Below, piece after piece: positions 22,731 through 40,830 of a stretch of DNA of 64,000 nt; positions within the stretch are counted from its first letter, which is position 1, and the number at the start of each line of letters is the position of its first letter. The DNA comes from Lentisphaera araneosa HTCC2155. GTDB taxonomy: Bacteria; Verrucomicrobiota; Lentisphaeria; Lentisphaerales; Lentisphaeraceae. The notes beneath the pieces were generated by a model. The model was not told where the DNA came from and searched no databases. It saw only the letters and a list, made by a program, of their open reading frames with translations. Where the stretch lies: contig NZ_ABCK01000009.1 of assembly GCF_000170755.1 (NCBI RefSeq), positions 62,001-126,000 of the forward strand, written 5' to 3'. Position numbers and translations under genes: made by a program.

Positions 22731-23349
22731 TTCTGTCTCTTAGATTAATTGTGGGAAATTACTTATTGAGAAGACAAAAACAAGGTTTTTAGTGAAAATT
22801 ATTCTCTCATCCATAGTTTATGTGATAAAACGACCTCCACAATTTTTTCAACTACGGGCAAAAGTATGTAGTCCACCGCTTTAGCGTGCGTCCAAACCTT
22901 CCTTCCCCCTGGGACCGCCCAGCTCCCGCTTGGCAATTGGTTTCAAACCTTTCTTCCCCCTGGGATCGCCAAGCTCCCGCTTGGCAATTGGTTTCAAACC
23001 TTTCTTCCCCCTGGGATCGCCAAGCTCCCGCTTGGCAATTGGTTTCAAACCTTTCTTCCCCCTGGGATCGCCCAGCTCCAACTTGGCAATTGTGTTCAAA
23101 CCTTCCTCCCCCCTAGGACCGCCCAGCTCCAACTTGGCAATTGTGTTCAAACCTTTCTTCCCCCTGGGATCGCCAAGCTCCCGCTTGGCACTATTTCAAT
23201 CCTCCCATCTCCGATAACCTCATAAATCATTTAATTATTAATTTGTTGTAAAAATTGTTATTACAACGACAGATCTGTGTAGCCAGTTTCGTAAATAGTT
23301 ATAATATCTTCCATTATTTTAATTATTACTATATTTTAAGGCTATGACA
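22731..23349. other. intergenic region holding a tandem repeat block
   Basis: About 620 bases without a credible gene. The middle is the 51-bp tandem repeat described separately; the right part (23200-23349) is AT-rich and should hold the promoter of the surface-protein/RHS operon. Open frames on both strands inside the repeat exist only because the unit is a multiple of three. Confidence 0.6.
22893..23199. repeat. six tandem 51-bp units with internal hairpins
   Basis: The hexamer CAAACC recurs at 22893, 22944, 22995, 23046, 23097 and 23148, exactly 51 bp apart, with a degenerate end near 23197. Each unit carries a conserved GGGA-C/T-CGCC core. In the best copies this core continues into GCCAAGC-TCCC-GCTTGGC, a perfect 7-bp stem with a 4-base loop; other copies have one or two stem mismatches. 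Copies differ by a few substitutions and no indels. Hairpin-bearing repeats of this kind resemble REP-type elements, but no REP-associated transposase is visible nearby. Confidence 0.9.
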
Positions 23350-24756
23350 ATGAAAAAATATATACCCCTACTAATTTTGAGTTTTACCCCCCTTTGTTTG
23401 TTCGCACAAAGCAATACTAAATACGGCACTAATTCAGGTGTAAGTCTTACCACTGGAGATATGAATAGTTTTTTTGGTGTAGCCTCAGGAAAAAATACAA
23501 CTTCTGGATATAACAATACTTTTATCGGCCTCAATGCAGGACTGGAAAACACCACAGGTCATCAAAATACATTTTTAGGTTTATCAGCAGGGGTCAGTAA
23601 TAGTACCGGCTTTGAAAATACTTTTCTTGGTCGCGGTGCAGGTGAAAGTAATACTTCTGGTTACAGGAATACTTTCATTGGTCTTTCCGCTGGCGATAAA
23701 AATACAACCGCAGATTATAATACTTTCATTGGGTTTTATTCAGGGTTTTCCAACACTATTGGGACTAAAAATACATATATAGGTACTAAGGCTGGTCAAG
23801 ATAATCAGACGAGTAGTAACAATGTGTTTATTGGCTCTTCCGCAGGCGAGAGAAGCAAACTTGGGCACAATACATATGTAGGTAAAAGTTCAGGATATCT
23901 AAATGTAAGCGGTAAAGAAAACACTTTTGTGGGGTCTCAATCAGGTTACAATAGTACCGAAGGGAGTTACAATTTACTCATGGGAGTTAATGCGGGATTT
24001 AATAATAAAGGCAATGAAAATGTGTTTTTAGGACATGACTCTGGACGACAAAATACTACAGGCTTCGCTAACACTTGTGTAGGCAAAACTGCTGGTTATT
24101 ATAATACAACAGGCCGTAGCAATACCTTTATAGGGCGTTATGCCGGTTTTAAAAATACCACTGGCTTCGCTAATGTACTTGTGGGTAGTGCAGCAGGTAT
24201 TAATAATATAGTTGGAAATCACAACGTATATCTTGGTCATGCATCCGCTTCTAATAATAATGGCTATAACAATGTTTTTATCGGTTTTAATGCTGGTTCC
24301 TCATATACTCAAGCTTCCGATAAACTTGTCATTGAAAATTCCAATTCAACTTCGCCCCTCATTTATGGTGAGTTTGATAATAATAAGCTCCAAGTCAATG
24401 GAGAACTTCGCGTTACCAACGGCATCCGTACAAACGAAGTAAATGTCCAGCTTCAGTCGGCCTGGCCAGATTATGTCTTTGCCGATGACTACCAACTTCC
24501 CACCATTGCGGAAATGGCAAACCATATCAAAGAACACAAACACCTGCCCGGCGTGCCCTCCGCAGCGCAAATCGAAAAAGACGGTCTCGATATGGCCAAA
24601 GTCATGTCAGCCCAAATGGAAAAAATCGAAGAACTCAGCCTTTACATCATCGAGCTCGAAAAGAAGAATCAAAAGTTAGAAAGCGAAAACACTGAAATCA
24701 CCAAAGAACTTCTGCCCTCGATTCTCGAACGCCTGCAAAAATTGGAGAATAAATAA
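23350..24756 (+). CDS. secreted 17-residue-repeat protein with tail-fibre-like C terminus (copy 1)
   Basis: The Met at 23350 is preferred over 23344 because AAGG then sits eight bases upstream and the signal peptide (MKKYIPLL to Phe-Ala-Gln) starts cleanly. About sixteen repeats of roughly 17 residues follow, with consensus N-T-F-I-G-x-x-A-G-x-x-N-T-T-G-x-x. These resemble the head repeats of trimeric adhesins and marine tail-fibre-domain proteins. The C-terminal 130 residues (WPDYVFADDYQLP, HKHLPGVPSA, MEKIEELSLYIIEL) form the conserved end found on many Bacteroidota tail-fibre-like or S74-type surface proteins, finishing in a coiled coil. It probably forms a trimeric surface fibre. It is the first gene of the operon leading to the RHS toxin and overlaps the next gene by one base. 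Confidence 0.85.
   Translation: MKKYIPLLILSFTPLCLFAQSNTKYGTNSGVSLTTGDMNSFFGVASGKNTTSGYNNTFIGLNAGLENTTGHQNTFLGLSAGVSNSTGFENTFLGRGAGESNTSGYRNTFIGLSAGDKNTTADYNTFIGFYSGFSNTIGTKNTYIGTKAGQDNQTSSNNVFIGSSAGERSKLGHNTYVGKSSGYLNVSGKENTFVGSQSGYNSTEGSYNLLMGVNAGFNNKGNENVFLGHDSGRQNTTGFANTCVGKTAGYYNTTGRSNTFIGRYAGFKNTTGFANVLVGSAAGINNIVGNHNVYLGHASASNNNGYNNVFIGFNAGSSYTQASDKLVIENSNSTSPLIYGEFDNNKLQVNGELRVTNGIRTNEVNVQLQSAWPDYVFADDYQLPTIAEMANHIKEHKHLPGVPSAAQIEKDGLDMAKVMSAQMEKIEELSLYIIELEKKNQKLESENTEITKELLPSILERLQKLENK
24355..24657 (+). repeat. C-terminal segment duplicated in the next gene (copy A)
   Basis: This stretch aligns without gaps to 26142-26444 (offset 1787 bp) with only scattered, mostly silent differences, while the upstream repeats of the two genes are more diverged. 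Recent duplication or gene conversion would explain this. Confidence 0.85.
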
Positions 24757-26543
24757 TGCGCTACTTACTTCTTTTACTCACAGCACTTTCAGCTCATGCG
24801 ATAATTGACGAAACTGAACTCAATACATCCTGGAAACTTCTCTACTTCGATGATTTTGAAGACGGTACTTTTGGAAATTATAGTGATGGTGGGACAGATT
24901 GTGGATTAGTTACTAATGCAAGTTATGTCTACAGCGGTACAAGAAGTTTAAAAATACAAGATAATACAGCTAGTTCCTTTACGCAGTTCACAAGTAATAT
25001 GAATTTGGCAGATAAACATTATCATAAGCTGAGAATTCATTTCAAGTATTACGTACGAAGCTTCACGGGCACGCAACATTTTAACCTTCAATATTCTTCG
25101 GATGGAGGTGTAAACTGGGTCGTGGTGAAATCTTTTGACCTCAATGATTTTACCAATGGTAGTTTCACAGATGCTGAAGTGATTTTGATTGATTCGTCTT
25201 ATACTTTTTCTGATTTATCAAGAATTCGCTTTGAATGTGAAGGTGGAAATGATGATGATAAGGTTTATTTGGATGATATTTCGATTCACGTATCACAGTT
25301 TAACACAATTATAGGTAATTTAGCTGGTCAAAATAATACCACTGGCAGGTACAACACTTTTATCGGTAAAAACTCTGGGCATCGTAATACGACTGGCTAT
25401 TACAACACATTTCTTGGCTTGAATTCTGGTTTAAATAATACGACTGGTTACCATAATACTTTTTTAGGTTTATCAGCAGGGGTCAGCAATAGTAATGGTT
25501 ATGAAAATACTTTTGTCGGGCGTGGTGCAGGTGAAAATAATACCACTGGTTTTAGAAACACCTTCATTGGTCGTTCTGCGGGTGACAGAAATACAAGTGC
25601 AGATTATAACACTTTTATCGGGTTTTCTGCGGGGTTCTCCAACACTACGGGGACTAACAATACATATTTAGGTTCGAATGCTGGTCGAGATAATCAGACG
25701 AGTAATGCTAATGTATTTATTGGTTATGCTGCAGGTGAGAGAAGTAAACAAAATCACAATACATATATAGGGAAACAGTCTGGCTACCTAAATGTCAATG
25801 GTAAAGAAAACACTTTTGTTGGTTCACAATCAGGTCAAAATAGTACCGAAGGTGATTATAATGTATTCATGGGGGTTAATGCGGGTTATGATAATCAAGG
25901 AAACTTAAATACCTTTATAGGGCGTGCAGCGGGACGTTTTAATGCTGAGGGAACTGGTAATAGTTTTATCGGCCATACTTCAGGCTGGAAAAATACGATC
26001 GGTTCTCAAAATACTTATTTAGGTGTAAGTGCAGGGTACCATAATTTAACTGGTTCAAATAATGTTTTTATCGGTTTTAATGTTGGAGCCAACGAAACCG
26101 GTTCTAACAAACTCTATATCGACAATAATGCGACAGCAACCCCCCTCATCTACGGTGAGTTTGATAATAATAAGCTCCAAATCAATGGTGAGCTCCGCGT
26201 TACCAATGGCATTCGCACTAATGAAGTGAATGTCCAGCTTCAGTCGGCCTGGCCTGATTACGTTTTTGCCGATGACTATCAACTCCCCACCATTGCGGAA
26301 ATGGCAAACCATATCAAAGAACACAAACACCTGCCCGGCGTGCCCTCAGCTGCGGACATCGCAAAAGACGGCCTCGATATGGCCAAAGTCATGTCAGCCC
26401 AAATGGAAAAAATTGAAGAACTCAGCCTCTACATCATCGAGCTCAAAAAAGAGAATAATACACTCAAAGATAAACTCGATCACAGCATCGAAAACAACCA
26501 AAAACAGATACAATCTATTTTACAAAAACTAGAGGGGAAATAA
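24756..26543 (+). CDS. secreted 17-residue-repeat protein with beta-sandwich N domain (copy 2)
   Basis: Overlaps copy 1 by one base (TAATG), so the two are coupled. A signal peptide (MRYLLLLLTALSAHA) is followed by a beta-sandwich-like domain at residues 20-183 (FDDFEDGTFGNYSDGG near the start, VYLDDISIHV at the end), similar to carbohydrate-binding or MAM-type jelly rolls. Then come about fifteen N-T-F-I-G-x-x-A-G repeats (184-455) and the same tail-fibre-like end as copy 1. The extra N-terminal domain would be a binding tip that copy 1 lacks, so the pair may build a mixed fibre or act as alternative adhesins. The sugar-binding role is a guess from the fold pattern. Confidence 0.85.
   Translation: MRYLLLLLTALSAHAIIDETELNTSWKLLYFDDFEDGTFGNYSDGGTDCGLVTNASYVYSGTRSLKIQDNTASSFTQFTSNMNLADKHYHKLRIHFKYYVRSFTGTQHFNLQYSSDGGVNWVVVKSFDLNDFTNGSFTDAEVILIDSSYTFSDLSRIRFECEGGNDDDKVYLDDISIHVSQFNTIIGNLAGQNNTTGRYNTFIGKNSGHRNTTGYYNTFLGLNSGLNNTTGYHNTFLGLSAGVSNSNGYENTFVGRGAGENNTTGFRNTFIGRSAGDRNTSADYNTFIGFSAGFSNTTGTNNTYLGSNAGRDNQTSNANVFIGYAAGERSKQNHNTYIGKQSGYLNVNGKENTFVGSQSGQNSTEGDYNVFMGVNAGYDNQGNLNTFIGRAAGRFNAEGTGNSFIGHTSGWKNTIGSQNTYLGVSAGYHNLTGSNNVFIGFNVGANETGSNKLYIDNNATATPLIYGEFDNNKLQINGELRVTNGIRTNEVNVQLQSAWPDYVFADDYQLPTIAEMANHIKEHKHLPGVPSAADIAKDGLDMAKVMSAQMEKIEELSLYIIELKKENNTLKDKLDHSIENNQKQIQSILQKLEGK
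26142..26444 (+). repeat. C-terminal segment duplicated from the previous gene (copy B)
   Basis: Partner of 24355-24657, in the same frame and at the same place in the protein. It codes the conserved tail-fibre-like end and the first part of the coiled coil. Confidence 0.85.
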
Positions 26544-26546: not shown

Positions 26547-28631
26547 GTGAAATACATATTTACACTGTTGTTAGGTCTTCAAGTTCTAGCTCTAGAAATA
26601 AATAATCAAACCATAAATAATCATTACCACCAGATTCTTAAAGAAGATGTAAATATTACGGCATCAAGTTTTTCTAATACTACTCACGGAATAATAGGAA
26701 CAAACAAAGCAATAAAAATTTTGCCCAATACTGTTCTTACATCTGATTCTGGATTCACACTCAGAGCAGGCAACTATTACAATGTTGTATTTAATACCTA
26801 TAATAATAATGGCGCACTTCAGGGAGAAATTGAGCAGGAGGTTTTTGAGGGGCTGGATGCAGAGTCTGTTGTTGTAACTCCTCCAGAAGGATATTCATTG
26901 GTTTTATGGTCTGACGGGACTCAGACAAGTTCTAACCTAATTACTAATGTTCGTTCAAATTTACAGGTTACTGCCTATCTTTCAGCAAACACTGCAAAAA
27001 TAGATTCATACCCACCATCGACTGAAAAAATTTATAATTATAATAAAACTCAAGCGAACATATTTACTTTTTCAGGGCTCACAAGTGCAATTGAACTTAA
27101 TTCGGTAAAGCTGCTGGAGCGAGTAGGTGATCAATATAAGGAATCTACTATTAGCTTCCAATTAACACCTAACGGCATTCTATTTGATTTTAGCGATCCA
27201 GATTATCGCACGTATGACTTTTTATTGATTGCCAGCAATGAAGAAGGTGAAAATATATATCATCTTAAATACGACTTGCTTGAGGGCTTAGTTAATACTG
27301 TGGCCAATTTAGAAAGCGGATTTTATACAAGTGCACAAACATTAGAGCTTACGGCCGCACCAGATCATACTATTTATTACTCAACTAACGGTTATCCACC
27401 AGTACCTGGAGAATCACACACCTTTTCTGCCCTCGGTGAAACCTCGATTAACATTAGTGATAACAAACTAATTTATTATTATTTTATTGATCCAAATGGT
27501 AATAGAGAAAAATCTATTAACAGTCGTTCATTCCGTTTTTATGAAAGTAAAGCTGCTTTGACCAGTATTTCTAATCCCACATACAATGGCAATGTAAAAC
27601 TCACTTGGGGAGCTCTAGCTGAGGCTACGAAATATAAAGTTTACAGGGCCGACAATCAGCTTGAATTAAATATCTTAAAAGAGGCTTTTAGTAATTCAAT
27701 TACCGCCCCTCAAAACCTGTTTATAGGAAGTACATCATTAACGACCTTTTCAGACTCTGAAGCAGCTCCACATATAGACTACTATTATGCTGTATCATAT
27801 TTAGATTCTAAAGGTGAGGAATCTTTGATTACTAACCCTGATTTGATGACCATTAATTATTCAAATAACGCCTCGATAAGCACGATTGCCGCATCAATTG
27901 ATAGGGGTTTAAAGTGGTTAAAGGCCAAGCAGATGACAAATGGACTCTGGTCAGTTGAAGACAAGGAGAACTTGGACTTTGTCTTAACAAGTGAGGCATT
28001 GAAAACTTTAGATGCATATGGTGAATATGATCTGTCTTATTATCTAGGTTTAAATGCATTAATATCTAAAGACTCTTCAGATAACGACTCACTGAGTCGG
28101 ATCTTATTTACTCTCTCAGCAGATTCTAATTACATAAAAAGTGGATATTATAAAAATTTCTTACTATTTAGAAAAACCAATGATTCAGGCTGGGGTTTAA
28201 ACACTAACTTTCAGCCTGACACGCTCACGACATTATTGGCTCTACAGTCACTTAACGGACTAGATTCAGATCAAAGTATAAGTTTAAATCATATTGCTAT
28301 TCCCAACAAGTACTTTGCTTCTAGCCAAGGCGACGGGCTGTCATTTGTTGCAGGTGGTTCTAATTCAGTATACTTAAATGCTTTAGCTTATGATCTTTTA
28401 AAAGAGTCGAATTTGGTTTCTGCCAATAGCTTAATTCAAACTATTGTACAACAATCAAATGGTTCTTATGATAACAGTTTATTAGATACCTGTGGAGCAA
28501 TTTTATATATGCCATTGAACACAGTAGCATTAAATAATGCAAAAAATTATTTAATTTCAAAACAAGAACTTAACGGAAGCTGGGGAGATATTTATCTTAC
28601 AGCTCTTTGTTTACAGGCAATGGCCAAATAA
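26547..28631 (+). CDS. secreted FN3 / cyclase-toroid protein
   Basis: A 694-aa protein starting at GTG, 3 bp after the previous stop, with AGGGG about 12 bases upstream. A signal peptide (MKYIFTLLLGLQVLA) is followed by a filament-type N-terminal region (SDSGFTLRAG), a chitobiase-C-terminal-like segment near 254-325 (YYSTNGYPP), an FN3-like domain near 341-438 (VKLTWGALAEATKYKVYRA), and from about 445 an alpha-toroid of the squalene-cyclase/prenyltransferase type (IDRGLKWLKAKQMTNGLWS; NGSWGDIYLTALCLQAM). The catalytic DxDD motif of cyclases is not evident, so the toroid probably binds rather than catalyses. It lies between the fibre genes and the RHS gene in one operon, so it may link the two at the cell surface; that is inference. 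Confidence 0.78.
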   Translation: MKYIFTLLLGLQVLALEINNQTINNHYHQILKEDVNITASSFSNTTHGIIGTNKAIKILPNTVLTSDSGFTLRAGNYYNVVFNTYNNNGALQGEIEQEVFEGLDAESVVVTPPEGYSLVLWSDGTQTSSNLITNVRSNLQVTAYLSANTAKIDSYPPSTEKIYNYNKTQANIFTFSGLTSAIELNSVKLLERVGDQYKESTISFQLTPNGILFDFSDPDYRTYDFLLIASNEEGENIYHLKYDLLEGLVNTVANLESGFYTSAQTLELTAAPDHTIYYSTNGYPPVPGESHTFSALGETSINISDNKLIYYYFIDPNGNREKSINSRSFRFYESKAALTSISNPTYNGNVKLTWGALAEATKYKVYRADNQLELNILKEAFSNSITAPQNLFIGSTSLTTFSDSEAAPHIDYYYAVSYLDSKGEESLITNPDLMTINYSNNASISTIAASIDRGLKWLKAKQMTNGLWSVEDKENLDFVLTSEALKTLDAYGEYDLSYYLGLNALISKDSSDNDSLSRILFTLSADSNYIKSGYYKNFLLFRKTNDSGWGLNTNFQPDTLTTLLALQSLNGLDSDQSISLNHIAIPNKYFASSQGDGLSFVAGGSNSVYLNALAYDLLKESNLVSANSLIQTIVQQSNGSYDNSLLDTCGAILYMPLNTVALNNAKNYLISKQELNGSWGDIYLTALCLQAMAK

Positions 28632-28648
28632 TGAGGGGAGTGAATAAA

Positions 28649-30184
28649 ATGTTAAAACAACTATTTCTGTTATTTATACTATCATTTTGCTTAAACTTAA
28701 AAGCAACAGATAATTTAGATGAAAATGGCAATCCTATAGATGATTACGTTTATACGGGTATTTTTGAGGAACTCAGCCCCGAGGATACAAATTCTGAAAT
28801 AGAATTACTGGTTCAAAATCTTGAGCATGATCCTTTGAAAATATTCAACTTTGTACGACAAAATATTGAATTTGAGGAGTACACAAAATCCATGCGTAGC
28901 GCAATTTCTGTCCTTGAAGCTCGACATGGAAACTACTATGATCAAAATATTTTATTGTTTACTTTATTGAAAGCTGCTGGCTTTAACGCAGATGGAGATT
29001 TACAAAATTTAAGGTACGCATACGACTCTGATTTAAACAAGATTTGGGTTGAAGTCAAATTAAATGTTTACGCATATCGTGGACTTAGTATTTCCTCACA
29101 GGAAATAAAATTAGAATGGATTCCTTTGGATCTGCATATAGATAAAGAAAAGCTTAAAAGTAAAAAGACCATTTTTAAATTTGATGTCCCTTTTTCGGAT
29201 GTGACTTCTTTTGATTATTCTGAGTACAACAAATCGTACAATGATATCGATCCAGTTGAATTGGTTTCTCAGCATGTAAGTGAATATGTAAAAAATAACG
29301 CTTATAGCTTTAAGGAATTATTGGCACCTAACAAAAAACCACACAATAAGCTTTTTTTATATCCTCTAAGTTTATCAACTAAGTTAGAAAATAATAACCA
29401 ACAACCTTCAATAAATTACTATAATTCTTTTCCTAAGCATCTTATGTCATACACCATTGTGGAAACATACCCCAATGGTTACAATTCTGATAAACTTTTA
29501 CAAAAAGTGAAAATTTATTTACCTACTGTATCTGATAAAATCATTGGTCTTACAACTACATACGTGAGTTCTGATCGAAGAAAAACAAAATTTACTGTTT
29601 ATTCTATTCAAAATGACTTCCAAGAATTAGGCTATGTAACGGGAGAATATTTTTCTGAAAGTTCATCCGGTGGTTATTACAAACCTGTTTTTAGCAATGA
29701 ATATCATGCACCTAGAGAAAAATCATTTAAATACTTTCGTGATGTTGTATATCTATGTGTAAATCCACTTGGGAATACCACAGAAAAAATTAATAAAATA
29801 GAAAAAGCCTTGTTAGCGATTAAAGATCAAGCATCCACAGATGATCAAAATAAAAAACATTTTTCTGTTTTGATGGATGCTTTAATTGGAACCAAATGGC
29901 TCTCAAAAACTTACATAAACACAAAAAAGCTATACAAAATGTTTGGTGTTTATGTTGACGATTATAGGCCATGTATAGAAATGATTGACAATGACTACAG
30001 AAATATTAAGTCAGATTTTAAAACTCCATATTCAAAGTATAACTACTCGCCACCAATTAGAGTGGATATTTCAACATACAGAGGTTATTTAAGAAATATT
30101 GATGGGTCTAACCTTTCAAATAATAATACTACTTTGGGGAGTTTAAAAAGGCACTCAAAAGAGGTCGAAATTTCAAGGTTGTGA
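28649..30184 (+). pseudogene. 5' part of giant transglutaminase-like/RHS gene, split by IS701
   Basis: The start is the ATG at 28649, with GAGGGGAG eight bases upstream, followed by a signal peptide (MLKQLFLLFILSFCLNLKA). Residues about 55-165 form a transglutaminase-like domain (DPLKIFNFVRQNIEFE; a GNYYDQNILL segment; WVEV). The usual catalytic Cys and His are not at the expected places, so it is probably not an active enzyme. This domain commonly precedes RHS repeats. From base 30129 the frame runs into the insertion sequence and stops 18 codons later. Joining base 30128 to base 31904 removes the element plus one target copy and continues in frame into the RHS gene (1480 + 7151 = 8631 bases, 2877 codons). 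As it stands the gene gives a secreted, truncated product. Confidence 0.85.
30121..30128. repeat. left 8-bp target site duplication
   Basis: TAATAATA directly before the left inverted repeat, matched by the same 8 bases at 31896-31903. The AAT-rich target makes the exact length uncertain by a base or two. Confidence 0.8.
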
Positions 30185-31895
30185 AGTATAGTAAAATCAT
30201 GAAAAAGAAACACTTACAACAAAAAAAAGGATCGAAAATGACCCCAAGCCCCACCTGCTAATGAGCATAAAGACAATATAGCATTATTAAGTCAAATCCC
30301 CAATAGATTATTGGGTTTTCTAGATAATTTCAAAGCTGTATTTAAGACACAAACTCATGATTCAAATGAACTTGCGTCTATGTATACAGGAGGTTTATTT
30401 ACCTCCGAGAAAGGTAATATAGAGCGTATCGAAGAAAGCGTCCCCGCCGTAAATTATGAACAACTTCGTCAATTCATCTCTAAATCACCGTGGTGTCACA
30501 ATCAGCTCATGACTGAAATAGCTTTGAGGGCTAATCGTAAACTGAAGGACTACTCCAACAAAAGCGAACTGCCAATAGGTTTTTATATCGACGAAAGTTC
30601 ATTCGTCAAAAAAGGTATGCACTCTGTTGGCGTATCACGTCAATGGCTCGGGTGTCGGGGTAAAGTAGACAATGGACAAGTTGCGGTTTTTTCATCCTTG
30701 GGGTGCGGAGCATATAACAGTTTGATTGACTGCCGGTTATTCCTCCCTGAGTGCTGGACCGAAGATAAAGAACGCTGTAATCGTGCTGGGATTCCCGAAG
30801 ATGAACAAGAATTCAAAACGAAAATTGAACTCGCAATAGAAAGCGTTATGGAAGCCCGAACGCAAGGTATTGTATATGATTTCATTGCAGTTGATGCACT
30901 TTATGGGAGTAGCTTTAAATTCATCAATAGACTCGATCAATTAGGGGAAGTTGTCATGGGGCGAATGCGTAATAGTATTCACGTTTATCTTGAGGAGCCT
31001 TTGTTTCAACTCCCTGAGCGAGAGTCTAATAAGGGACGTAAGCCCACAAAACTACGGGCACAAACTTTGAGTGTGACAGTAAAAAGTATCGCCGAATCCA
31101 TTAAAGAAAATCTTTGGGAAGATATTGACATTAGAAGTACAACCAAAGGCATATTAAAGGTTCAGGCATTCCAAAAAAAAGTGTGGCTGCATGATGACGA
31201 ATCGGGCGAAGTAAAACAGTGGGATTTAATAATTTGTAGAGATAATCAAACTACTTCATTGAAGGATTACACTTATACAATAAGCAACACAGCAAGCTCA
31301 AAAACGCTTCAGGAGATGATTCAAATGGATCGGCAACGCTACTGGATCGAGCGTTCATTCCAGGACAATAAAAATGAAGTGGCTATGGATGAATACCAAG
31401 TCAGGAAATATCGTGGTTTTTATCACCATATGAGCCTTTGCATGCTCGCTACCTTATTTTTAATGGAAGAGCGTATGGATTGTAAAGACACCTTGCCTCT
31501 TTTATCTTGTGCCGACATTAGAAGAGCTATGGAGTTTCTTATGCCCAAGAAAGTAACGAACTTGGAAGAATTCTGTGTTCAAATGGAGGTAAGGCATATA
31601 AAACGGCAAAAAAGTATAGATCATGCCAGTCGGGATGCTATTCCACATTAATAATTAAAATTCAAGCGGTCTCAATCTTACAAAAATTCTTCTATCAAGA
31701 TAGAGGAAGGCTTCCTGCTGTTTAAATCAGATGATTTTTGTGGCTTTTTTAGTCGAATCAGACCACCACTTCATCACAAAATCGAAATGTACCCTGTCTA
31801 CCATCTATTGATGGCGGGGGTAATCTGGGGTTATATATTTTATGATCACGCCGCGTTTGAATCTGAGCAATATGATTCTAAACGCCCCAAAGTAG
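30129..31895 (+). mobile_element. IS701-family insertion sequence (1767 bp)
   Basis: The left end (CTACTTTGGGGAGTTTAAAA, 30129-30148) and the reverse complement of the right end (CTACTTTGGGGCGTTTAGAA, 31876-31895) match at 18 of 20 positions. An 8-bp direct repeat flanks the element. It carries one transposase in the orientation of the operon. It interrupts the giant RHS gene, and its removal restores the frame exactly, so the insertion is recent enough that both ends and the host gene are intact. IS701 relatives usually make shorter duplications (about 4 bp), so the 8 bases may partly reflect the AAT-repetitive target. Confidence 0.92.
30311..31651 (+). CDS. IS701-family DDE transposase (N-terminal frame disrupted)
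   Basis: Characteristic IS701 motifs: VNYEQLRQFISKSPW; IDESSFVKKGMHSVGVSRQW with the first catalytic Asp; the middle Asp in IAVDALYG; and RYWIERSFQDNKNE with the catalytic Glu, followed by HHMSLCMLATLFLMEER. The listed start is a TTG with no ribosome binding site. The natural start looks like the ATG at 30238, which has AAGGA six bases upstream. From there the frame breaks at the run of four C at 30242-30245: with one C fewer, it would read straight through into the transposase. So the copy is inactive, is translated by a frameshift, or holds a sequence error. The C-terminal part is intact. Confidence 0.9.
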   Translation: MGFLDNFKAVFKTQTHDSNELASMYTGGLFTSEKGNIERIEESVPAVNYEQLRQFISKSPWCHNQLMTEIALRANRKLKDYSNKSELPIGFYIDESSFVKKGMHSVGVSRQWLGCRGKVDNGQVAVFSSLGCGAYNSLIDCRLFLPECWTEDKERCNRAGIPEDEQEFKTKIELAIESVMEARTQGIVYDFIAVDALYGSSFKFINRLDQLGEVVMGRMRNSIHVYLEEPLFQLPERESNKGRKPTKLRAQTLSVTVKSIAESIKENLWEDIDIRSTTKGILKVQAFQKKVWLHDDESGEVKQWDLIICRDNQTTSLKDYTYTISNTASSKTLQEMIQMDRQRYWIERSFQDNKNEVAMDEYQVRKYRGFYHHMSLCMLATLFLMEERMDCKDTLPLLSCADIRRAMEFLMPKKVTNLEEFCVQMEVRHIKRQKSIDHASRDAIPH

Positions 31896-31903
31896 TAATA
31901 ATA
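31896..31903. repeat. right 8-bp target site duplication
   Basis: TAATAATA directly after the right inverted repeat, matching 30121-30128. Confidence 0.8.
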
Positions 31904-32091
31904 AGAATTTTTTAACTAAAATAAAAGGTAATTTTTCATCATTATACGAAGCAACGGCAATTGAAGATGTATTAAATACCTCTAGCTCATCAACGGTCAG
32001 AGCTCTGCAAACTGCTAACGAAGCCGACGTTGACATAAATAGCTATAAGTTCACTAAAATTGAATCCAACAAACTCTCTGTAAACAAGAAT

Positions 32092-35000
32092 GTGTCAAAA
32101 GAATTATTTACAGGCGATTATATAAAAATTGATGGAACTAAGTTTCTCATCACCAATGTGGAAAGCAATGTTGTTACAGTTGACGGTGTTCTCAGTGACG
32201 AGGCCGATTATTCAAGAGTTTCCAGATCTGTACCTATTATCACAATAAGCAAAGGCTCCATTCAAACAAAAGACGAACTTAAAGCTCTTCTTCGTTTAGA
32301 TGGTTATTTAAAATATGACTCTCAATCTATCGATTGGATTTTTGACAAAATCCCAAATTACGATTTAGAAGTACCCCTTACACGTATAGCTCGAAACGGA
32401 ATGTCAGTTTATGCTTTGTCGGGTTTTAATGGAGGAAGCTATACCCAATCATTTTCTATAAATTCAATTGGCTTACCAAATAATGGCGCTGGTTCAGAGG
32501 GAGCCATAGGACCAGAACTTCCTAGAGAAAATGTTAAGGTACAAGAAATTGATTTTGTCGATTATATACCACATGTTCAACAAACCAATAATGATTTTTC
32601 AGTAGAGGCACATGAAACAGTAATTAAGCAGGGTACAAACTCTAATTCAGAAATTAATCTGGTGAACAAAGATTTGGCAAATGCTAGAGTACATGCTGCT
32701 GGCGATCCAGTTAATCTTGTGACAGGTGAATTTTATACCGAATGGAACCCAGATTTTGTCATACCGGGAAGATTTTCTCCATTAGCACTAAACCGTAATT
32801 ACCATAGTAGAATTACATACGATGGACCCTTTGGCTATGGATGGGCATGGAATCATTCAGAGACAGTTTTTTACAGTGTAGACGGGTTCATATTTTTTGA
32901 TGAAGAGAGAGTGTCACATATAATTGAAAGAGATCAAAATGGGCAATTTGTGCTGCCGCCAGGTAGTAAGTTTGAGTTCACAGAAAAGAGTGACACCCTT
33001 GAAGTGAGATACAAAAATAATCGCAAGTTAATTTTTGATATTGATGGTTATTTAATCAAAAAAGAAAATCCAACCGGCGATTTCATTGTATTTAATTATG
33101 ACGATGATTATAATTTAACTTCTTATGAGGATCAAATAGGTCGTGAAATTACTTTTCTATATGAAGATACCAATAATCCAAATAAAGTAACTACTGTTAT
33201 TGACTGTGCAGAAAGGCAATTTAAATACACCTACTCCGAGGGAGCATTAACATCCTATACAGATAGTCAAGGAAGAAAAACTGCTTACGAATATTTAACT
33301 AATCAAGACAATGTTGATAATGATTATAACATGACCAAAATGACTCTTCCTAACGGAGATTATTTGGATATAAAATATTATCAAAACGACAAAGTTGCAT
33401 GGCATCAAAATTCACAGGGAGATAAATTTCACTTCAAATATAGTCCAATCAATCGTTACACAGAGACATGGAATGAAGAAGATTATTATGCCAAAATCAT
33501 TTATAGTGAAAAAAATGATGTCCTCTACGAAGAATTTAGAGACTTTACCTTTAATACATTTACATATGATGATCAACATAATTTACTCACCAAAAAAGAC
33601 GGCAACAGTAATTTATGGTCCTATACCTACGATAGCCACAATAACCTGACTTCAAAAACCACCCCTTTAGGCATAAAAACCATTTATGTCTATGACCTAA
33701 ACTGGCATAAACCCAAAGCAGTTTACGGCCCCTTCAAGGCATCCTCCTATGGGGTCTTTGTAAATAACTTTTCGACAAACCCCACCAATCCTGAAAGCGG
33801 TATAGCAGCCAACCTCATTCCACCTCATCAGTCGTTTAATTATAGTGCTTCAACGGGTCAATTACTCAATCAAACAGATGCCATAGGCAATCCGACTTTT
33901 TATACTTATAATGCCACCACCAACAAGCTTGAAATAGTGACCAATGCTTTAGGTCATCAGCAAACGACGATCTATGACTCCAATGGCCTTTATGTCGATA
34001 AGCTAATAGATGCTAAAAATTATGTGACAGATTTGACTTACAACGCACGTGGATTGAAAACATGGCAGAAAGACCCTTTATCCAATGAAACCACCTATAC
34101 TTACTCAAATTCTGATAAACTTTTATCCATTAAATACCCTGATGATTCTACACAAACATACACGTATAATAGCTTAGATAAGCCGAGTACCACAAGCGAT
34201 ACTCTAGGCAATACAACAACTTACTCATATTTTCCAGCCAGGGACCTTGTTGTAGGTCAGAAGATCGCATCCATAAAAGACCCACTGAACTTTGAAGTGA
34301 AATACGAGTACAATGCCCGTGGCCTTAAAACTGCAGCCATCGATAAAAACGGCAATCGGACCGAATTCAAATACGATGGCGCCGAACGCCTAATCGAAAA
34401 ACTACTCCCCAGTCAAACTAGGCTCATCTACCAATACGACTCCAATGGCAACCTGCTGTCCGAAACCAAATACTACCGCGATACTATGGAGGCACAGAGC
34501 ACTTCTTCACAAAAGTTCTTTACTCAAGAAACCACCTACACCTACGATGCCGATAATCGTAAAATATCCATGACTACTCACGGAGATAAGACCACAAGCT
34601 ATCAATACAATGACGGTATAAATTTGACCGACATCATTCTTCCAGATGACACGCGTACGCACTTTGATTACGATGCCCTTAATCGCAAAGTTGCTCAGAC
34701 CCTCAACTATGGAGCCAGTGACCAACGCATGACCACTTACGTCTACGATGCTATAGGACGACTGGCCCAGACCATAGACCCACTAGGTTTAGTGCAAGAA
34801 AACGTCTACGATGCCAACTCAAATAAAATTCAGCAGCGCCTCTATAATCAGAGCTCCCCTACAAACGCCATCGTCACCAATTTCACTTACAATGAAAAAA
34901 ATCAGCTCATAAGTAAAACCGACCCCAATGGAACATTCTACAACGATGATGAGGCTTTTACAGAGTATTATACCTATAACTCAAGAGGTAAAATGCTCTC

Positions 35001-38000
35001 AAAAATTGACACCCTGGACTATGTCCAAAAATTCAATTACGACTCACATGGCAACCTCACTTCAGCAGTCGACCCACTCGGCAACTTGACTAAGTTTCAG
35101 TATAACTCCCGTCACGAGAGAGTAAGCTCCATCAACGCACTCTCGCATACAGAGCACTTTGATTTCGATCCCAATGGTAACCTCATCGCTTACACTGACC
35201 AAAACAAGCATTTGATCTACTATACCTACAATGCCCATAATCAGCAGACTTCCAGCATTTTTAGTGACTCAGTTTATGGTCAAGATGATCAAATTATCAG
35301 CGCCTCAACTGTATTCGATGGCTTAGGACGTGTGGCACTAAATATTGATCCACTTGGAAATGCCGTCGAACATACCCACGGCCCAGATAATCAACTGATC
35401 AGTAAAACCCTACCAAAAGTTGACAATTATTACATTAATTCAAACGCAACCATTACCTCAAATAACTCCCAACTAGCAGGTATATTGACATGGGATTATG
35501 ACAATATGAACCGCCTTAAGTCCACCACAGACTTAAACGGCAATACAACGCAGTTCGAGTACAATGCTTTTGGGCAAAAAACATTAGAAAGAAACCCCGA
35601 TGGCACAGAAACCCGTTCTCTATACAACAAACGCGGTCAGTTAACCGACGTCTTTACGGCCATTAGAACAGGCGATAATAACTACTATTCCAATTCCGCC
35701 AATCTAGCCGCGGGCCAGCATAGCAAATACCTCTACGATAACTTTGGTCGACAAACACATCTATACCAAGCCTACGGTACATCCGAACAAACATGCACCG
35801 AAAGCCAATACGATCATAACGGCAATATTGTAAAAATCATCAAACACTTCAAAAATGACCCAAGCAAAAATCAAGTTACAGATTTTATCTTCGATGAACT
35901 CAATAGACCTATTCAGACCATACAGCGTGGCGATGATATGGATCTTGATCGTATAACCTACACCCACTACAACGCATTGGGTCAAGTAACTTCCACAGAA
36001 GATGCCGAAGCTAGCCAGACCGTCTATGTTTACGATGTCATTGGCCGTAAAGTTGAAGAAATTGACCCAGATGGCAATTCAATGTTCTTTGAATACGACG
36101 CCAAAGGACAACTCATTACTCAAACCGATGCCGAAGGCATCACCACCACCTTTACCTATAATAATCGTGGACTCACCACTTCCCAAACCCTTGGCCAATT
36201 CACCCGCTATTACGAATACGACGCCCGCGGCAACCTCACCAAAGAAACAGACTACAATGGCACTGTTACTATGTACGCCTATGACGACCGTTCACGTCTC
36301 CAATTCACCTACGAAGCAGTGGGCACAGCTCAGTACAAGTTCACTAAAAACTTCTACGATGATAATGGCAATATATTAGCACACACCTCCGATTACCAAG
36401 GATCCAATTCATCCACTTATCGCTATAAATTTGCCTATGACTCGCTCAACCGTAGAATTAAAGAATACGATGGCAATAATAAACTCAAACAGTTTACTTA
36501 TAACAATCGTACAGGCCTTATCGATAACATTAGAAAACGTGACGGCTCCTACATTGTCTATAACTACGATGCCATGGCTCGCCAGAAAGAAGTGAAAGCT
36601 GGCCCAAGCTTAACAAATGTGAGCCTCAAGCAGTCCTTTACCTACGATAACTTTTCGAGGATGACCACAGCTAAAGAGCATGACCAAAATACCTACGATC
36701 AAGTAGAAATGATCTACAATATATTCGATGATTTAGTCATGGAAACAGACCCTGCCAATCGCACCACCATGGCAATCTATAATCAACGTAGTCAAATCAG
36801 TATGCTACAATACCAGTCCGGTAAAACATTGGAATACCAACATACGAACTCAGGCCTTATCTCAAGTATAGAAGAATTCGACAACACCAGTAAAGCATTA
36901 GTAGATTACACCTACAATGCCCGCCACAGTCGCACCCATACAACAATGGCCAATGGTCTCGAACAAAGCTTGTCCTATGATAACCGTGGTCTACTAGCAA
37001 GTTATTCCTATTCAAATAACTCCAATCAGAGCATCTATAGTTCCACAAATATGACCTACGATGGTCAAGCTAACCTCACCTCACAGCACTTAGCGACACC
37101 AACGGAAAATAATACCCGCACATTACAGTACGATGCACTCGAGCGTATCATCGCGGACTCTCGCTCAAACTATAACCATAACTGGACTTACGACGCTAAC
37201 GGCAACTGGACCTCCACCAATCACAACGGAGCCCACGAAAACCGTAGCGCCAATAACGCCAATCAATACAACCACTTAGGCTACGATGGTCACCAGCCTG
37301 GCTCGTCAGATAGTGCAAAGACTAATGGCAATATCACCTATGATGGTAAATATAACTATGTTTACGACTGGAATGACCGCCTTATCGAAGTTCGCAGCCA
37401 AGATAACTCCACCACTATAGCAAACTATACCTACGATGCCCTAAATCGCCGTATTTCAAAAACGACTGCATCCCACACCATCGAGTATCATTACTTCCAA
37501 TCAGAACTTTTAGAAGAATATAAAAATGGCTCCTTAGAGCGTTTGCACACCTACGGTGCCAGGATGGACGAAATCCTCACAACAGAAATTATTAACCAAG
37601 ATCAAGAACTTCATTACCTTCGCGATAGTTCAAATTCAGTCGTAGCTATTACAGATGAGACTGGCAACCTACTCGAATCCTATTCCTACACTTCTTTTGG
37701 CATCCGCACAATCTATAATCAAACTGGCCAAGAAATTGCCAACTCCGCATACGGCATTACTGCCGGTTACACAGGGCGTGAATACGACTCTGAATCAGGC
37801 CTCTGGCATTACCGTAACCGTATGTACTCAGCTGAAATCGGCCGTTTTATGCAAGTTGACCCAGCAGGATTCGTCGACGGCCTCAACCTCTACGCCTACG
37901 TGAAAAACAATCCAATTAACTTCATCGACCCTTGGGGTTTACAGGCTCTTAATCTCAATAGCAGAGGTGAAGGTAATTTTGATTGGAGTACTGGTAAGGT

Positions 38001-39054
38001 TACACCAATGTCTATGTTTGAGGATCAAGGTATAGGTTTAGGACCCGATGGTAGGTATCGTAAATTTAATACTAATACTGGAAAAAGAGAACTTTATTAC
38101 AATAATACTGTAGTTAGTGAATCGGGGTCGATTCTACAATCAGATTGGAATGGAAATGTAAGAGTTTTAGACACTGAAAATGCTAGTGTATATGACTATC
38201 AATCATTAACGGGTATAGCAATTTCTCAAAATTATGAAGGGGAAATAACATATGCACAATTTAATGGAGCAGAACAAATAAGCCCATTAAAAATAAATAT
38301 ATATAAAACCCCCGAACCTACCACACAGGGCAACCTTTCGGGAATCCATACTGATGTTAAAGCAGAGTGGGATGGTTACTTTTCAGGAGAGAGTAGTAAT
38401 CAGTTTTTTAATAAACAGCATAGCCTCTTATTAAAGAGCAACACTCAAGTTAAAAACTTCGCATATCATGGAGGTAAACAGAGTGATTGGGGGCGCTTTG
38501 GCATAGGTGCTGCTAAAACGGTGGCTTCAGTGACACCAATATTGGGTGAATATCAAGACCTAAGAGTCTTAGGCGCAAATGATAGTACGACTTCTGATAA
38601 ATTGGTAGCTATGGCAAGTTTAGGTTTAAGTGTGGTTTCTGGAACTATTACTCCTAATTTTGGTGGTATGTTAAAGTCTGGAAAAACCTATAATAAACAA
38701 ACAGGTCAAGGGCTTTATGCTTTAATTGATGATGTTGGTGATGTTCGTTATATCGGTAGAGGAGATGCACCTGTAAGGTTGAAAAAACACGCATCGTCAG
38801 ATCGTTTAGGTGAGTATCGTGGAGTAGTTTTGCGAAATAATGATTTAACTAAAGCCCAAGCGAAAGGTCTTGAAAATACTCTTATTGGTAGATATGGTGG
38901 TGCAGAATCAGTTAATCCTACTACTAACCTTCTAAATAGAATTAGATCCTTTTCACCAATGAACCGTAATGCAACCCAGTATCAAAATGCAGTTTCACCC
39001 GAACTTCTAAATGACATGATTAAAAAACTTAATAAAGCAAGAGTAGATTTATAA
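32092..39054 (+). CDS. RHS/YD-repeat polymorphic toxin with GIY-YIG-like nuclease tip (3' part of split gene)
   Basis: The frame is open from 31882, but the first start-type codon is the GTG at 32092, which has no ribosome binding site. The true start is probably 28649, before the IS701 insertion. A DUF6531-type segment (GDPVNLVTGEFY, residue about 205) precedes dozens of YD repeats. The RHS core ends at GRFMQVDPAGFVDGLNLYAY and NPINFIDPWGL (near 1920-1945). Next come a variable region, a hydrophobic pre-toxin segment (VASVTPILGEYQDLR), and a tip from about 2205 with the GIY-YIG order: GLY, YIG, a following Arg, Glu in GLENTLIGRYGG and Asn in TNLLNRIRS. GIY-YIG folds are nucleases, so the tip is a probable DNA- or RNA-cleaving toxin. 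An immunity gene overlaps by one base. Secretion would need the upstream signal peptide, now separated by the IS. Confidence 0.92.
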   Translation: MSKELFTGDYIKIDGTKFLITNVESNVVTVDGVLSDEADYSRVSRSVPIITISKGSIQTKDELKALLRLDGYLKYDSQSIDWIFDKIPNYDLEVPLTRIARNGMSVYALSGFNGGSYTQSFSINSIGLPNNGAGSEGAIGPELPRENVKVQEIDFVDYIPHVQQTNNDFSVEAHETVIKQGTNSNSEINLVNKDLANARVHAAGDPVNLVTGEFYTEWNPDFVIPGRFSPLALNRNYHSRITYDGPFGYGWAWNHSETVFYSVDGFIFFDEERVSHIIERDQNGQFVLPPGSKFEFTEKSDTLEVRYKNNRKLIFDIDGYLIKKENPTGDFIVFNYDDDYNLTSYEDQIGREITFLYEDTNNPNKVTTVIDCAERQFKYTYSEGALTSYTDSQGRKTAYEYLTNQDNVDNDYNMTKMTLPNGDYLDIKYYQNDKVAWHQNSQGDKFHFKYSPINRYTETWNEEDYYAKIIYSEKNDVLYEEFRDFTFNTFTYDDQHNLLTKKDGNSNLWSYTYDSHNNLTSKTTPLGIKTIYVYDLNWHKPKAVYGPFKASSYGVFVNNFSTNPTNPESGIAANLIPPHQSFNYSASTGQLLNQTDAIGNPTFYTYNATTNKLEIVTNALGHQQTTIYDSNGLYVDKLIDAKNYVTDLTYNARGLKTWQKDPLSNETTYTYSNSDKLLSIKYPDDSTQTYTYNSLDKPSTTSDTLGNTTTYSYFPARDLVVGQKIASIKDPLNFEVKYEYNARGLKTAAIDKNGNRTEFKYDGAERLIEKLLPSQTRLIYQYDSNGNLLSETKYYRDTMEAQSTSSQKFFTQETTYTYDADNRKISMTTHGDKTTSYQYNDGINLTDIILPDDTRTHFDYDALNRKVAQTLNYGASDQRMTTYVYDAIGRLAQTIDPLGLVQENVYDANSNKIQQRLYNQSSPTNAIVTNFTYNEKNQLISKTDPNGTFYNDDEAFTEYYTYNSRGKMLSKIDTLDYVQKFNYDSHGNLTSAVDPLGNLTKFQYNSRHERVSSINALSHTEHFDFDPNGNLIAYTDQNKHLIYYTYNAHNQQTSSIFSDSVYGQDDQIISASTVFDGLGRVALNIDPLGNAVEHTHGPDNQLISKTLPKVDNYYINSNATITSNNSQLAGILTWDYDNMNRLKSTTDLNGNTTQFEYNAFGQKTLERNPDGTETRSLYNKRGQLTDVFTAIRTGDNNYYSNSANLAAGQHSKYLYDNFGRQTHLYQAYGTSEQTCTESQYDHNGNIVKIIKHFKNDPSKNQVTDFIFDELNRPIQTIQRGDDMDLDRITYTHYNALGQVTSTEDAEASQTVYVYDVIGRKVEEIDPDGNSMFFEYDAKGQLITQTDAEGITTTFTYNNRGLTTSQTLGQFTRYYEYDARGNLTKETDYNGTVTMYAYDDRSRLQFTYEAVGTAQYKFTKNFYDDNGNILAHTSDYQGSNSSTYRYKFAYDSLNRRIKEYDGNNKLKQFTYNNRTGLIDNIRKRDGSYIVYNYDAMARQKEVKAGPSLTNVSLKQSFTYDNFSRMTTAKEHDQNTYDQVEMIYNIFDDLVMETDPANRTTMAIYNQRSQISMLQYQSGKTLEYQHTNSGLISSIEEFDNTSKALVDYTYNARHSRTHTTMANGLEQSLSYDNRGLLASYSYSNNSNQSIYSSTNMTYDGQANLTSQHLATPTENNTRTLQYDALERIIADSRSNYNHNWTYDANGNWTSTNHNGAHENRSANNANQYNHLGYDGHQPGSSDSAKTNGNITYDGKYNYVYDWNDRLIEVRSQDNSTTIANYTYDALNRRISKTTASHTIEYHYFQSELLEEYKNGSLERLHTYGARMDEILTTEIINQDQELHYLRDSSNSVVAITDETGNLLESYSYTSFGIRTIYNQTGQEIANSAYGITAGYTGREYDSESGLWHYRNRMYSAEIGRFMQVDPAGFVDGLNLYAYVKNNPINFIDPWGLQALNLNSRGEGNFDWSTGKVTPMSMFEDQGIGLGPDGRYRKFNTNTGKRELYYNNTVVSESGSILQSDWNGNVRVLDTENASVYDYQSLTGIAISQNYEGEITYAQFNGAEQISPLKINIYKTPEPTTQGNLSGIHTDVKAEWDGYFSGESSNQFFNKQHSLLLKSNTQVKNFAYHGGKQSDWGRFGIGAAKTVASVTPILGEYQDLRVLGANDSTTSDKLVAMASLGLSVVSGTITPNFGGMLKSGKTYNKQTGQGLYALIDDVGDVRYIGRGDAPVRLKKHASSDRLGEYRGVVLRNNDLTKAQAKGLENTLIGRYGGAESVNPTTNLLNRIRSFSPMNRNATQYQNAVSPELLNDMIKKLNKARVDL

Positions 39055-39461
39055 TGCCAAAAGTAATAGCAAAAGCAGGTGATTTAATTGCCATCCCCTT
39101 AGATGGTCAATTTGTTATTGGTCGAGTAATTTTTGTATCAAATATTTTTGAAGAAATAATGCAAATTGAATTTCGAGGTCCATTTAAGAATGAAAATGAT
39201 TCATGGCAAAATGGGGATGAGATATTCACATTGTTTACAGCGGCATCTAAATTTGCTAAGAGAGGATGGAAAATTGTTGATACAGGAATATCCCAAGAAG
39301 ATGATATAGATAAGACTCTTAGAATTATTGCTGATGATGTTTGGTTAGAGGATAAGATAGTTAGAAAAGCAAATTCGGAAGATATGAAAAAAATAAAAAC
39401 TATGTATGTAGATGGATTTATTAGAGTAGAAAAACTTCTTAGAAAAGCTTTGGGCAACTAA
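39054..39461 (+). CDS. Imm26-like immunity protein
   Basis: A 135-aa protein whose ATG overlaps the RHS stop (TAATG), which couples its translation to the toxin. The N terminus reads AGDLIAIPLDGQFVIGRV, matching the start of the Imm26 family (GD-x-x-AIPL-DG-x-x-x-GRV) known from polymorphic toxin loci. There is no signal peptide, as expected for a cytoplasmic antidote. The likely role is to bind and block the GIY-YIG tip of the neighbouring RHS protein. The pairing is inferred from position. Confidence 0.82.
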   Translation: MPKVIAKAGDLIAIPLDGQFVIGRVIFVSNIFEEIMQIEFRGPFKNENDSWQNGDEIFTLFTAASKFAKRGWKIVDTGISQEDDIDKTLRIIADDVWLEDKIVRKANSEDMKKIKTMYVDGFIRVEKLLRKALGN

Positions 39462-39478
39462 TTGCATTAATTATCTTA

Positions 39479-39517
39479 AAAACGGATGAAACCCTTAAAA
39501 GTTCTCATCCGTTTTTT
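39479..39517 (+). terminator. rho-independent terminator after the immunity gene
   Basis: Perfect 11-bp stem AAAACGGATGA / TCATCCGTTTT with a 15-base loop, ending in a run of six T, 17 bp after the immunity stop. It probably ends the surface-protein/RHS operon. The right arm and its flank recur at 39741-39759. Confidence 0.8.
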
Positions 39518-39606
39518 CTTGTAAAATAACCCAAATTCCCCCTCAATTCGCAACAGGTAGCCCTTAGCAGAATCGTATTCATTCTTGAGTTAAAGAGGGA
39601 GTGAAT

Positions 39607-39687
39607 ATGTTTGTTTTTCTACTGGCGATACAAGTGGTGGTTTTATTACTGATAGTGGGTGATTTGTTTAAGAAAAAGGGCTTGTAA
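39607..39687 (+). CDS. 26-aa hydrophobic membrane peptide
   Basis: A very short frame with a strong ribosome binding site (AGAGGGAG, seven bases before the ATG). The product is a single membrane helix with a charged end: MFVFLLAIQVVVLLLIVGD, then FKKKGL. It lies between two copies of the same hairpin (39479 and 39721). It could be a small membrane regulator or a type I toxin-like peptide. No antisense RNA can be proved from the sequence. The coding call rests on the site quality and clean helix design. Confidence 0.5.
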   Translation: MFVFLLAIQVVVLLLIVGDLFKKKGL

Positions 39688-39720
39688 ATCTTTTGTGTTT
39701 TTACCTAACCCATACCCTAA

Positions 39721-39759
39721 AAAACGGATGAGACTGAATCAAAAGTTCTCATCCGTTTT
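39721..39759. terminator. second copy of the terminator-like hairpin
   Basis: 13-bp perfect stem AAAACGGATGAGA / TCTCATCCGTTTT. It shares 19 identical bases (39741-39759) with the terminator at 39479-39517. It ends the transcript of the 26-aa peptide gene. Confidence 0.7.
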
Positions 39760-40011
39760 GCATTTGAGAGAAGAGGTTTAAACCTCGATAGGATTGATTT
39801 AGTGTATTGCTCGTGAACCAAGTAGTCTGGGTGAAGAATGAGCGACTAATAAAGGCTTTAAATCATGATTAACCAAATACTAGATTCCAATTTGGATTGG
39901 TGAGAACCAATGATATTGGTTGGAGTCGCCAAGCTCCGTTGAGAGTAAATGAGTATGATATACTTTAACAGGAATAAACAAAAAAGAACCCCGCACTAGG
40001 GGTTCTTAAAA
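39760..40011. other. non-coding stretch between hairpin and small reverse genes
   Basis: No gene seen. A short piece near 39926-39940 (TCGCCAAGCTCC) repeats the core of the 51-bp unit at 22893-23199 and may be a remnant of the same repeat family. Confidence 0.4.
39978..40007 (-). terminator. rho-independent terminator for the reverse HTH operon
   Basis: Perfect 9-bp stem AAGAACCCC / GGGGTTCTT with a 6-base loop. Read on the minus strand it is followed by TTTTT. It lies 5 bp after the stop of the small acidic gene. Confidence 0.85.
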
Positions 40012-40155
40012 CTAACCTTCATCCTCTTCATCAAGATCAATATCGAAATCAAGATTGATAAGATTATCAAGGTGGTGATTCTCCATCAGGCTTAGGATGA
40101 TTTTCTTTTGTTGCTCAAGAATATCTTTGGCGTCAGCCCAATCTTCATCGGTCAT
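40012..40155 (-). CDS. small acidic protein, 47 aa
   Basis: Starts at ATG 40155 with AGAGGAAGAAAG just upstream and overlaps the end of the HTH gene by 11 bp. The product (MTDEDWADAKDILEQQKKII, then an Asp/Glu-rich end) is strongly acidic and helical, with no known motif. Its position directly downstream of an excisionase-like gene and before a good terminator makes a two-gene unit. It could be an accessory or antagonist of the DNA-binding protein; that is a guess. Confidence 0.6.
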   Translation of the reverse strand: MTDEDWADAKDILEQQKKIILSLMENHHLDNLINLDFDIDLDEEDEG

Positions 40156-40417
40156 CTTTCTTCCTCTTACAATTTTTTGTGATCCGATCAAGTTCCTTCT
40201 TTAAGTCTTCCTTCTCGTACTCAGCTAAGCATGATCTTAGGAATTTATTTAACTGTGCCCAACTGACATAGATTTTCTTAGGGCTTACACGTAGGCATTC
40301 CAATCTATCTTCTTTTATATATTTGCGAACTGTCTTAATATTGACTCTAAGGAATTGTGCCGTCTCACGTAACGTGAGTAGATGCCTGTATTGGTTATCA
40401 TTAGGTGTATTATCCAT
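40145..40417 (-). CDS. excisionase-like helix-turn-helix protein (HTH_17 type)
   Basis: A 90-aa protein with a MerR-like winged helix-turn-helix: LTLRETAQFLRVNIKTVRKYIKE, then a basic wing, the normal form of HTH_17/excisionase proteins. AAGG lies about eight bases before the ATG. It is transcribed away from a small basic gene and a serine recombinase, so it may act as the recombination directionality or regulatory factor of a small mobile element. A simple plasmid-type regulator is the alternative. Confidence 0.78.
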   Translation of the reverse strand: MDNTPNDNQYRHLLTLRETAQFLRVNIKTVRKYIKEDRLECLRVSPKKIYVSWAQLNKFLRSCLAEYEKEDLKKELDRITKNCKRKKDDR

Positions 40418-40615
40418 CTTTATACCTTTTCATTTAGTTATAGGTATTTATAAAACTAATACGGATTTTTCGGGAAGTATGGAGAGATTTAGACCTAAGT
40501 TAAATCTTATTGGGCTTGGAGTTAGCGAGTGTATGTGTGAATGCAGTCTAACTAATCGGAGTAAGTTTTTTATTTTTTGTGAAATTTGATAAATATTTCT
40601 AAAAGGATTATAAAA

Positions 40616-40783
40616 ATGAACTCAAGACAAATAAGACAAAAGTATAATGACAAGGCTCGTGTTCTGAGAAAGAAAAATAAAGAGTTAGATTCCAAGAAAA
40701 ATACTAATAAGGCGAAACTTAATCAATTACGTTCTGATATGAACAGAGCACTTAAGTCAGCTTCTGATAAAAAGAGTCGATAA
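40616..40783 (+). CDS. small highly basic protein, 55 aa
   Basis: The ATG at 40616 has AAGGA eight bases upstream. This is a better start than the longer frame from 40586. The product is about one-third Lys/Arg, mostly helical (MNSRQIRQKYNDKARVLRKK; ending ALKSASDKKSR), with no signal peptide. It could bind nucleic acid. It is set between the HTH gene (divergent) and the recombinase. Confidence 0.55.
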   Translation: MNSRQIRQKYNDKARVLRKKNKELDSKKNTNKAKLNQLRSDMNRALKSASDKKSR

Positions 40784-40830
40784 AACACATAAAATATTGG
40801 TAACCAATACATTAAAACAAATATTTTTGC

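What the first reader, a model, noticed from the sequence alone, without database searches (positions are those of the whole stretch)
28649..39054. IS701 element cleanly splits one giant transglutaminase-like/RHS gene
The 5' part (28649-30128) and the RHS part (31904-39054) join in frame when 30129-31895 and one TAATAATA copy are removed. The combined 8631 bases give 2877 codons. The inverted ends (18 of 20 bases) and the 8-bp direct repeat confirm the edges. Annotators would otherwise report two unrelated genes, one of them without a signal peptide or real start. A reversible or recent knock-out of a toxin in an otherwise intact operon is suggested.
Basis: seen in the sequence. Interest (0 to 1): 0.85.

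Follow-up and report, generated by a model that had tools for sequence, protein, structure and literature searches.

The report
Mobile element splits bacterial toxin gene

Summary
An IS701-family element (window 30127-31897, 1771 bp; three copies in the genome) interrupts one large gene. Single-gene origin was shown with the pieces apart: frame arithmetic fits; the only long open frame on each side runs to the element; relatives in several phyla carry transglutaminase-like and RHS parts in one ORF; and a module that follows the transglutaminase-like domain in relatives lies on the RHS side, upstream of the apparent GTG start at 32092. The gene belongs to a published class: secreted RHS polymorphic toxin with catalytically dead N-terminal transglutaminase, C-terminal URI/GIY-YIG-like nuclease tip, and Imm26-like immunity gene. 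It sits on a ~19.6-kb segment absent from a congener. Recent inactivation is well supported; reversibility is unsupported. One possibly unreported point: a squalene-cyclase-like alpha/alpha-toroid protein is encoded beside such transglutaminase-like proteins in 27 of 77 loci, all on the same strand, and is fused in one.

The parts
28649..30126 (+). 5' piece of the split toxin gene: signal-peptide-like start, catalytically dead transglutaminase-like domain (residues 63-161)
   Evidence: Transglut_core E=5.5e-06; open frame runs without a stop into the element; Cys position reads GNYYDQ
30127..31897 (+). IS701-family insertion sequence, 1771 bp, 13-bp perfect inverted ends TACTACTTTGGGG
   Evidence: 3 copies; edges from the three copies; transpos_IS701 4.4e-77
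30311..31651 (+). IS701 transposase ORF (TTG start as listed)
   Evidence: DDE_5 2e-39; NF033540 4.4e-77
30123..30126 (.). left copy of 4-bp target duplication ATAA
31898..31901 (.). right copy of 4-bp target duplication ATAA
31912..32094 (+). conserved ~60-residue module that follows the transglutaminase-like domain in relatives; lies upstream of the apparent GTG start at 32092
   Evidence: profile built from three relatives without the window hits residues 5-65 of the 3' piece, E=7.8e-05; coding score positive only in this frame
31898..39054 (+). 3' piece of the split toxin gene: module above, DUF6531, RHS/YD repeats, RHS core
   Evidence: RHS_repeat 1.4e-89, DUF6531 1.6e-15; Rhs_assc_core 5.1e-22
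38671..39051 (+). C-terminal variable tip, URI/GIY-YIG-like nuclease by motif (GLY..YIG..R..KxxE..N)
   Evidence: translation against Tox-URI1 motif in PMC3482391; degraded plasmid homologue next to an annotated Imm26 gene
39054..39461 (+). immunity gene candidate, Imm26-like; start codon overlaps the toxin stop (TAATG)
   Evidence: Imm26 E=0.0059, below its cut-off; 24% identical, E=8e-06, to the annotated Imm26 protein on NZ_AP028044
26547..28631 (+). upstream partner candidate: secreted protein with CHB_HEX_C_1 domain and a squalene-cyclase-like alpha/alpha-toroid at its C-terminus
   Evidence: (profile to squalene-hopene cyclase 1.5e-30); same-strand neighbour of TGL proteins in 27 of 77 loci
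23344..26543 (+). two related secreted repeat proteins (NTTGYxNTFxG repeats), first genes of the presumed operon
   Evidence: translations; 64% identical to each other

Best explanation
A Lentisphaera-like bacterium carries a roughly 19.6-kb strain-specific segment with an operon for a secreted RHS polymorphic toxin: surface-type repeat proteins, a toroid-domain protein, the toxin (signal peptide, inactive transglutaminase-like domain, conserved linker module, RHS shell, nuclease-type tip) and an Imm26-like immunity protein. An IS701 element inserted, with a 4-bp ATAA target duplication, inside the toxin gene between the transglutaminase-like domain and the linker module. Translation of the 5' piece ends shortly inside the element, so a full toxin cannot be made; the RHS-tip part has no signal peptide and no evident start. 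Shown by sequence: the insertion, its edges, the single-gene origin and the architecture. Inferred: the nuclease activity, the immunity function, the bacterial target, the loss of toxicity and the recency.
For: Three IS copies with identical ends and exact 4-bp TSDs. Frame arithmetic and unique open frames on each side. Relatives with both domains in one ORF. Linker module on the RHS side of the element, ahead of the apparent start. Coding signal reaches both element edges in the right frames. Published class: inactive N-terminal transglutaminase, then RHS, then toxin, and Tox-URI1 paired with Imm26 (PMC3482391). No Cys at the nucleophile position in the window or in the sites read from relatives. 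Copies 1 and 2 of the element are identical and both gene pieces are stop-free, which suggests a recent event. Congener G002 has the flanking genes about 230 bp apart.
Against: Tip nuclease and Imm26 assignments rest on motif and weak scores (Imm26 0.0059, below its cut-off; no Pfam family hits the tip; the tip fold was uninformative, pLDDT 37). No uninterrupted copy of this locus was found in a close strain. Many relatives of the transglutaminase-like domain are stand-alone ~1000-aa proteins.
Confidence: 0.92

Rival explanations
1. Two genes that were always separate, a stand-alone transglutaminase-like gene and an RHS gene, with the element inserted between them.
For: Most relatives of the transglutaminase-like domain are stand-alone ~1000-aa proteins without RHS in the held DNA; L100 has a 793-aa transglutaminase-like ORF followed 40 bases later by an RHS ORF.
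Against: The 5' piece has no stop before the element and is only 493 residues; the module found at residues ~700-900 of most relatives lies on the RHS side ahead of the apparent start; frames agree; relatives with the same upstream toroid gene have the fused form.
Confidence: 0.04
2. The insertion is a reversible or regulatory switch: precise excision restores the toxin in some cells, or read-through from the element drives the 3' piece and the immunity gene.
For: The transposase ORF is intact and points the same way as the toxin gene, with no terminator-like site found in 31400-32500.
Against: No empty-site evidence for this locus; precise excision is rare for such elements (general knowledge); the other two copies also split ordinary ORFs, so there is no sign of targeting.
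Confidence: 0.05
3. Assembly artefact: repeat copies wrongly joined inside the gene.
For: Draft genome of 81 contigs, with two identical element copies.
Against: Each of three copies has its own matching 4-bp TSD, which a misjoin would rarely give; both pieces stay in register.
Confidence: 0.02

Closest known systems
RHS polymorphic toxins with inactive N-terminal transglutaminase domain (Zhang et al. 2012, PMC3482391)
   Same: Signal peptide, dead transglutaminase-like domain, RHS filament, variable toxin tip, downstream immunity gene
   Different: Here the gene is split by an IS; a toroid-domain gene lies directly upstream, which that paper's held text does not mention
Tox-URI1 / Imm26 toxin-immunity pairs (PMC3482391)
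   Same: Tip shows the Y, YxG, R, [RK]xxE, N pattern; next gene resembles Imm26
   Different: Scores are weak; no direct profile hit for the tip
IS701 family insertion sequences (PMC2266710)
   Same: Transposase family, YACT in the terminal sequence, 4-bp target duplication
   Different: 1771 bp, longer than the listed typical 1400-1550 bp
Squalene-hopene cyclase-type alpha/alpha-toroids (PDB 8pak, 1sqc)
   Same: Upstream ORF 26547-28631, C-terminal ~250 residues: profile and predicted fold match
   Different: Part of a secreted multi-domain protein; enzymatic activity not tested

Membership tests
IS701 family element | IS701-type DDE transposase | tested here: met
   NF033540 4.4e-77, above cut-off
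IS701 family element | 4-bp target site duplication | tested here: met
   ATAA, ATAA, CTAA in three copies; 4 bp per PMC2266710
IS701 family element | terminal inverted repeats with YACT at positions 4-7 | tested here: met
   TACTACTTTGGGG at both ends, against the end consensus in PMC2266710
IS701 family element | typical length 1400-1550 bp (a usual range, not a strict definition) | tested here: not met
   1771 bp; the paper gives a typical range only, so this does not exclude membership
RHS polymorphic toxin with inactive transglutaminase | signal peptide followed at once by a transglutaminase-like domain lacking catalytic residues | tested here: met
   hydrophobic N-terminus (by eye); domain 5.5e-06; Cys absent
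RHS polymorphic toxin with inactive transglutaminase | RHS repeat array and RHS core, in the same gene | tested here: met
   same gene inferred, pieces kept apart
RHS polymorphic toxin with inactive transglutaminase | variable C-terminal toxin domain with adjacent immunity gene | tested here: inconclusive
   motif match for the tip; Imm26 0.0059 below cut-off, supported by the plasmid pair
Tox-URI1 nuclease tip | URI/GIY-YIG fold | tested here: inconclusive
   sequence motif fits; single-sequence fold pLDDT 37
Tox-URI1 nuclease tip | nuclease activity | not testable with these tools
   needs a bench assay

The most novel reading that the evidence does not exclude
The inactive-transglutaminase proteins, alone or fused to RHS toxins, work together with a secreted squalene-cyclase-like alpha/alpha-toroid protein that is regularly encoded beside them across several phyla and fused to one of them. 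This would be an undescribed two-part surface or export module, here disabled by the element.
Probability: 0.4. Interest if true: 0.5.

Novelty: new member of a known kind. Interest (0 to 1): 0.3.

Why it matters
It shows a toxin locus apparently caught shortly after inactivation, with its likely immunity gene kept, and warns that annotation would list two unrelated genes. The recurring toroid neighbour gives a testable lead on how these secreted RHS toxins are anchored or exported, which the 2012 survey left as a guess.

Tried and rejected
An 8-bp TSD (rejected by the other two copies). The tip's predicted structure (pLDDT 37, uninformative). Tip relatives in 198 genomes of the class, in genome contigs and in PDB sequences (none credible). 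Relatives of the 5' piece in viral contigs (none). Anti-phage defence families (only a chance-level hit). RNA families in 22000-43000 (none). A promoter downstream of the element on the plus strand (none). Direct or inverted repeats of 12 bases or more shared by the edges of the ~19.6-kb segment (none).

Full report
Check of the element. The genome holds three copies of the element. With ends set at TACTACTTTGGGG, each copy is flanked by an exact 4-bp repeat: ATAA in the window, ATAA at C5, CTAA at C18. At C18 an uninterrupted tandem copy of the target gene lies in the same locus and shows what the empty site looks like. The family paper gives 4-bp repeats and YACT near the ends for IS701 (PMC2266710), and the transposase model agrees. 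The window and C5 copies are identical; the C18 copy has two single-base deletions that break its transposase frame. All three copies split ordinary ORFs, so there is no sign that toxins are targeted.

One gene or two. The arithmetic works: 10406 minus 1775 is 8631, divisible by three, and the 3' frame is the one expected. On each side only that frame is open for long up to the element, and its codon usage stays gene-like to the edge. The 5' piece carries Transglut_core, the 3' piece DUF6531 and RHS repeats. In relatives G010, G066 (three loci) and G015 a single ORF carries similarity to both pieces; Pfam itself does not call the transglutaminase domain in G015. In a scan of named genomes 9-10 of 77 loci are fused, most of the rest are stand-alone transglutaminase-like proteins, and one (L100) has the two parts in adjacent ORFs. 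A profile built from three relatives, without the window, finds a conserved module that follows the transglutaminase-like domain; in the window it sits at residues 5-65 of the 3' piece (E=7.8e-05 among 436 sequences), upstream of the apparent GTG start at 32092. The element thus cuts inside one protein. No promoter-like site lies on the plus strand there.

What the gene is. The architecture is the one Zhang et al. described in 2012: signal peptide, inactive transglutaminase domain, RHS repeats, variable tip (PMC3482391). The nucleophile cysteine is missing in the window and in every relative whose site I could read. The tip fits the published Tox-URI1 pattern, and that paper pairs Tox-URI1 with Imm26. 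The next gene, whose start overlaps the toxin stop, is weakly Imm26-like, and a degraded tip homologue on a Phytobacter plasmid is followed by an annotated Imm26 gene. Nuclease and immunity functions remain inferred; the tip fold gave no usable model.

Setting. In congener G002 the genes flanking window 22.73-42.30 kb lie about 230 bases apart, so the operon sits on a segment of about 19.6 kb that was gained here or lost there. The segment also holds a resolvase-type recombinase (40909-41523) and a 51-bp tandem repeat (22893-23190). The organism looks like a Lentisphaera species from genome size and relatives (my inference; no tool named it). It has no other relative of the 5' piece in its genome.

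Possible new point. The gene directly upstream, 26547-28631, ends in a squalene-cyclase-like toroid (profile 1.5e-30 to squalene-hopene cyclase; model pLDDT 81, best PDB match 8pak). Similar toroids lie on the same strand near the transglutaminase-like gene in 27 of 77 loci, and in one the two are fused. The 2012 survey does not mention it in its held text, and no held paper combined at least four of five related terms. This is an association, not a shown function.

Verdict. The finding is right in substance, with corrected edges. It is a recent-looking IS701 disruption of a known type of toxin gene. Reversibility is unsupported. The toroid partner is the part most worth following.

Noticed in passing
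window 22728-42300: A ~19.6-kb segment absent from congener G002, where the flanking genes are about 230 bases apart; it carries the toxin operon and a serine recombinase.
   Followed up: partly
window 26547-28631: Squalene-cyclase-like toroid protein encoded beside transglutaminase-like proteins in 27 of 77 loci, fused in L050.
   Followed up: partly
window 22893-23190: 51-bp tandem repeat, 5.8 copies, just upstream of the operon.
   Followed up: no
L002 1499-3269 and L003 1499-3267: The other two element copies also split ORFs (an SGNH-hydrolase-like one by eye; a short ORF whose intact tandem copy lies beside it); the L003 copy has a frameshifted transposase.
   Followed up: partly
L100 5899-12195: Only clear case of transglutaminase-like and RHS parts in adjacent separate ORFs, 40 bases apart.
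   Followed up: no
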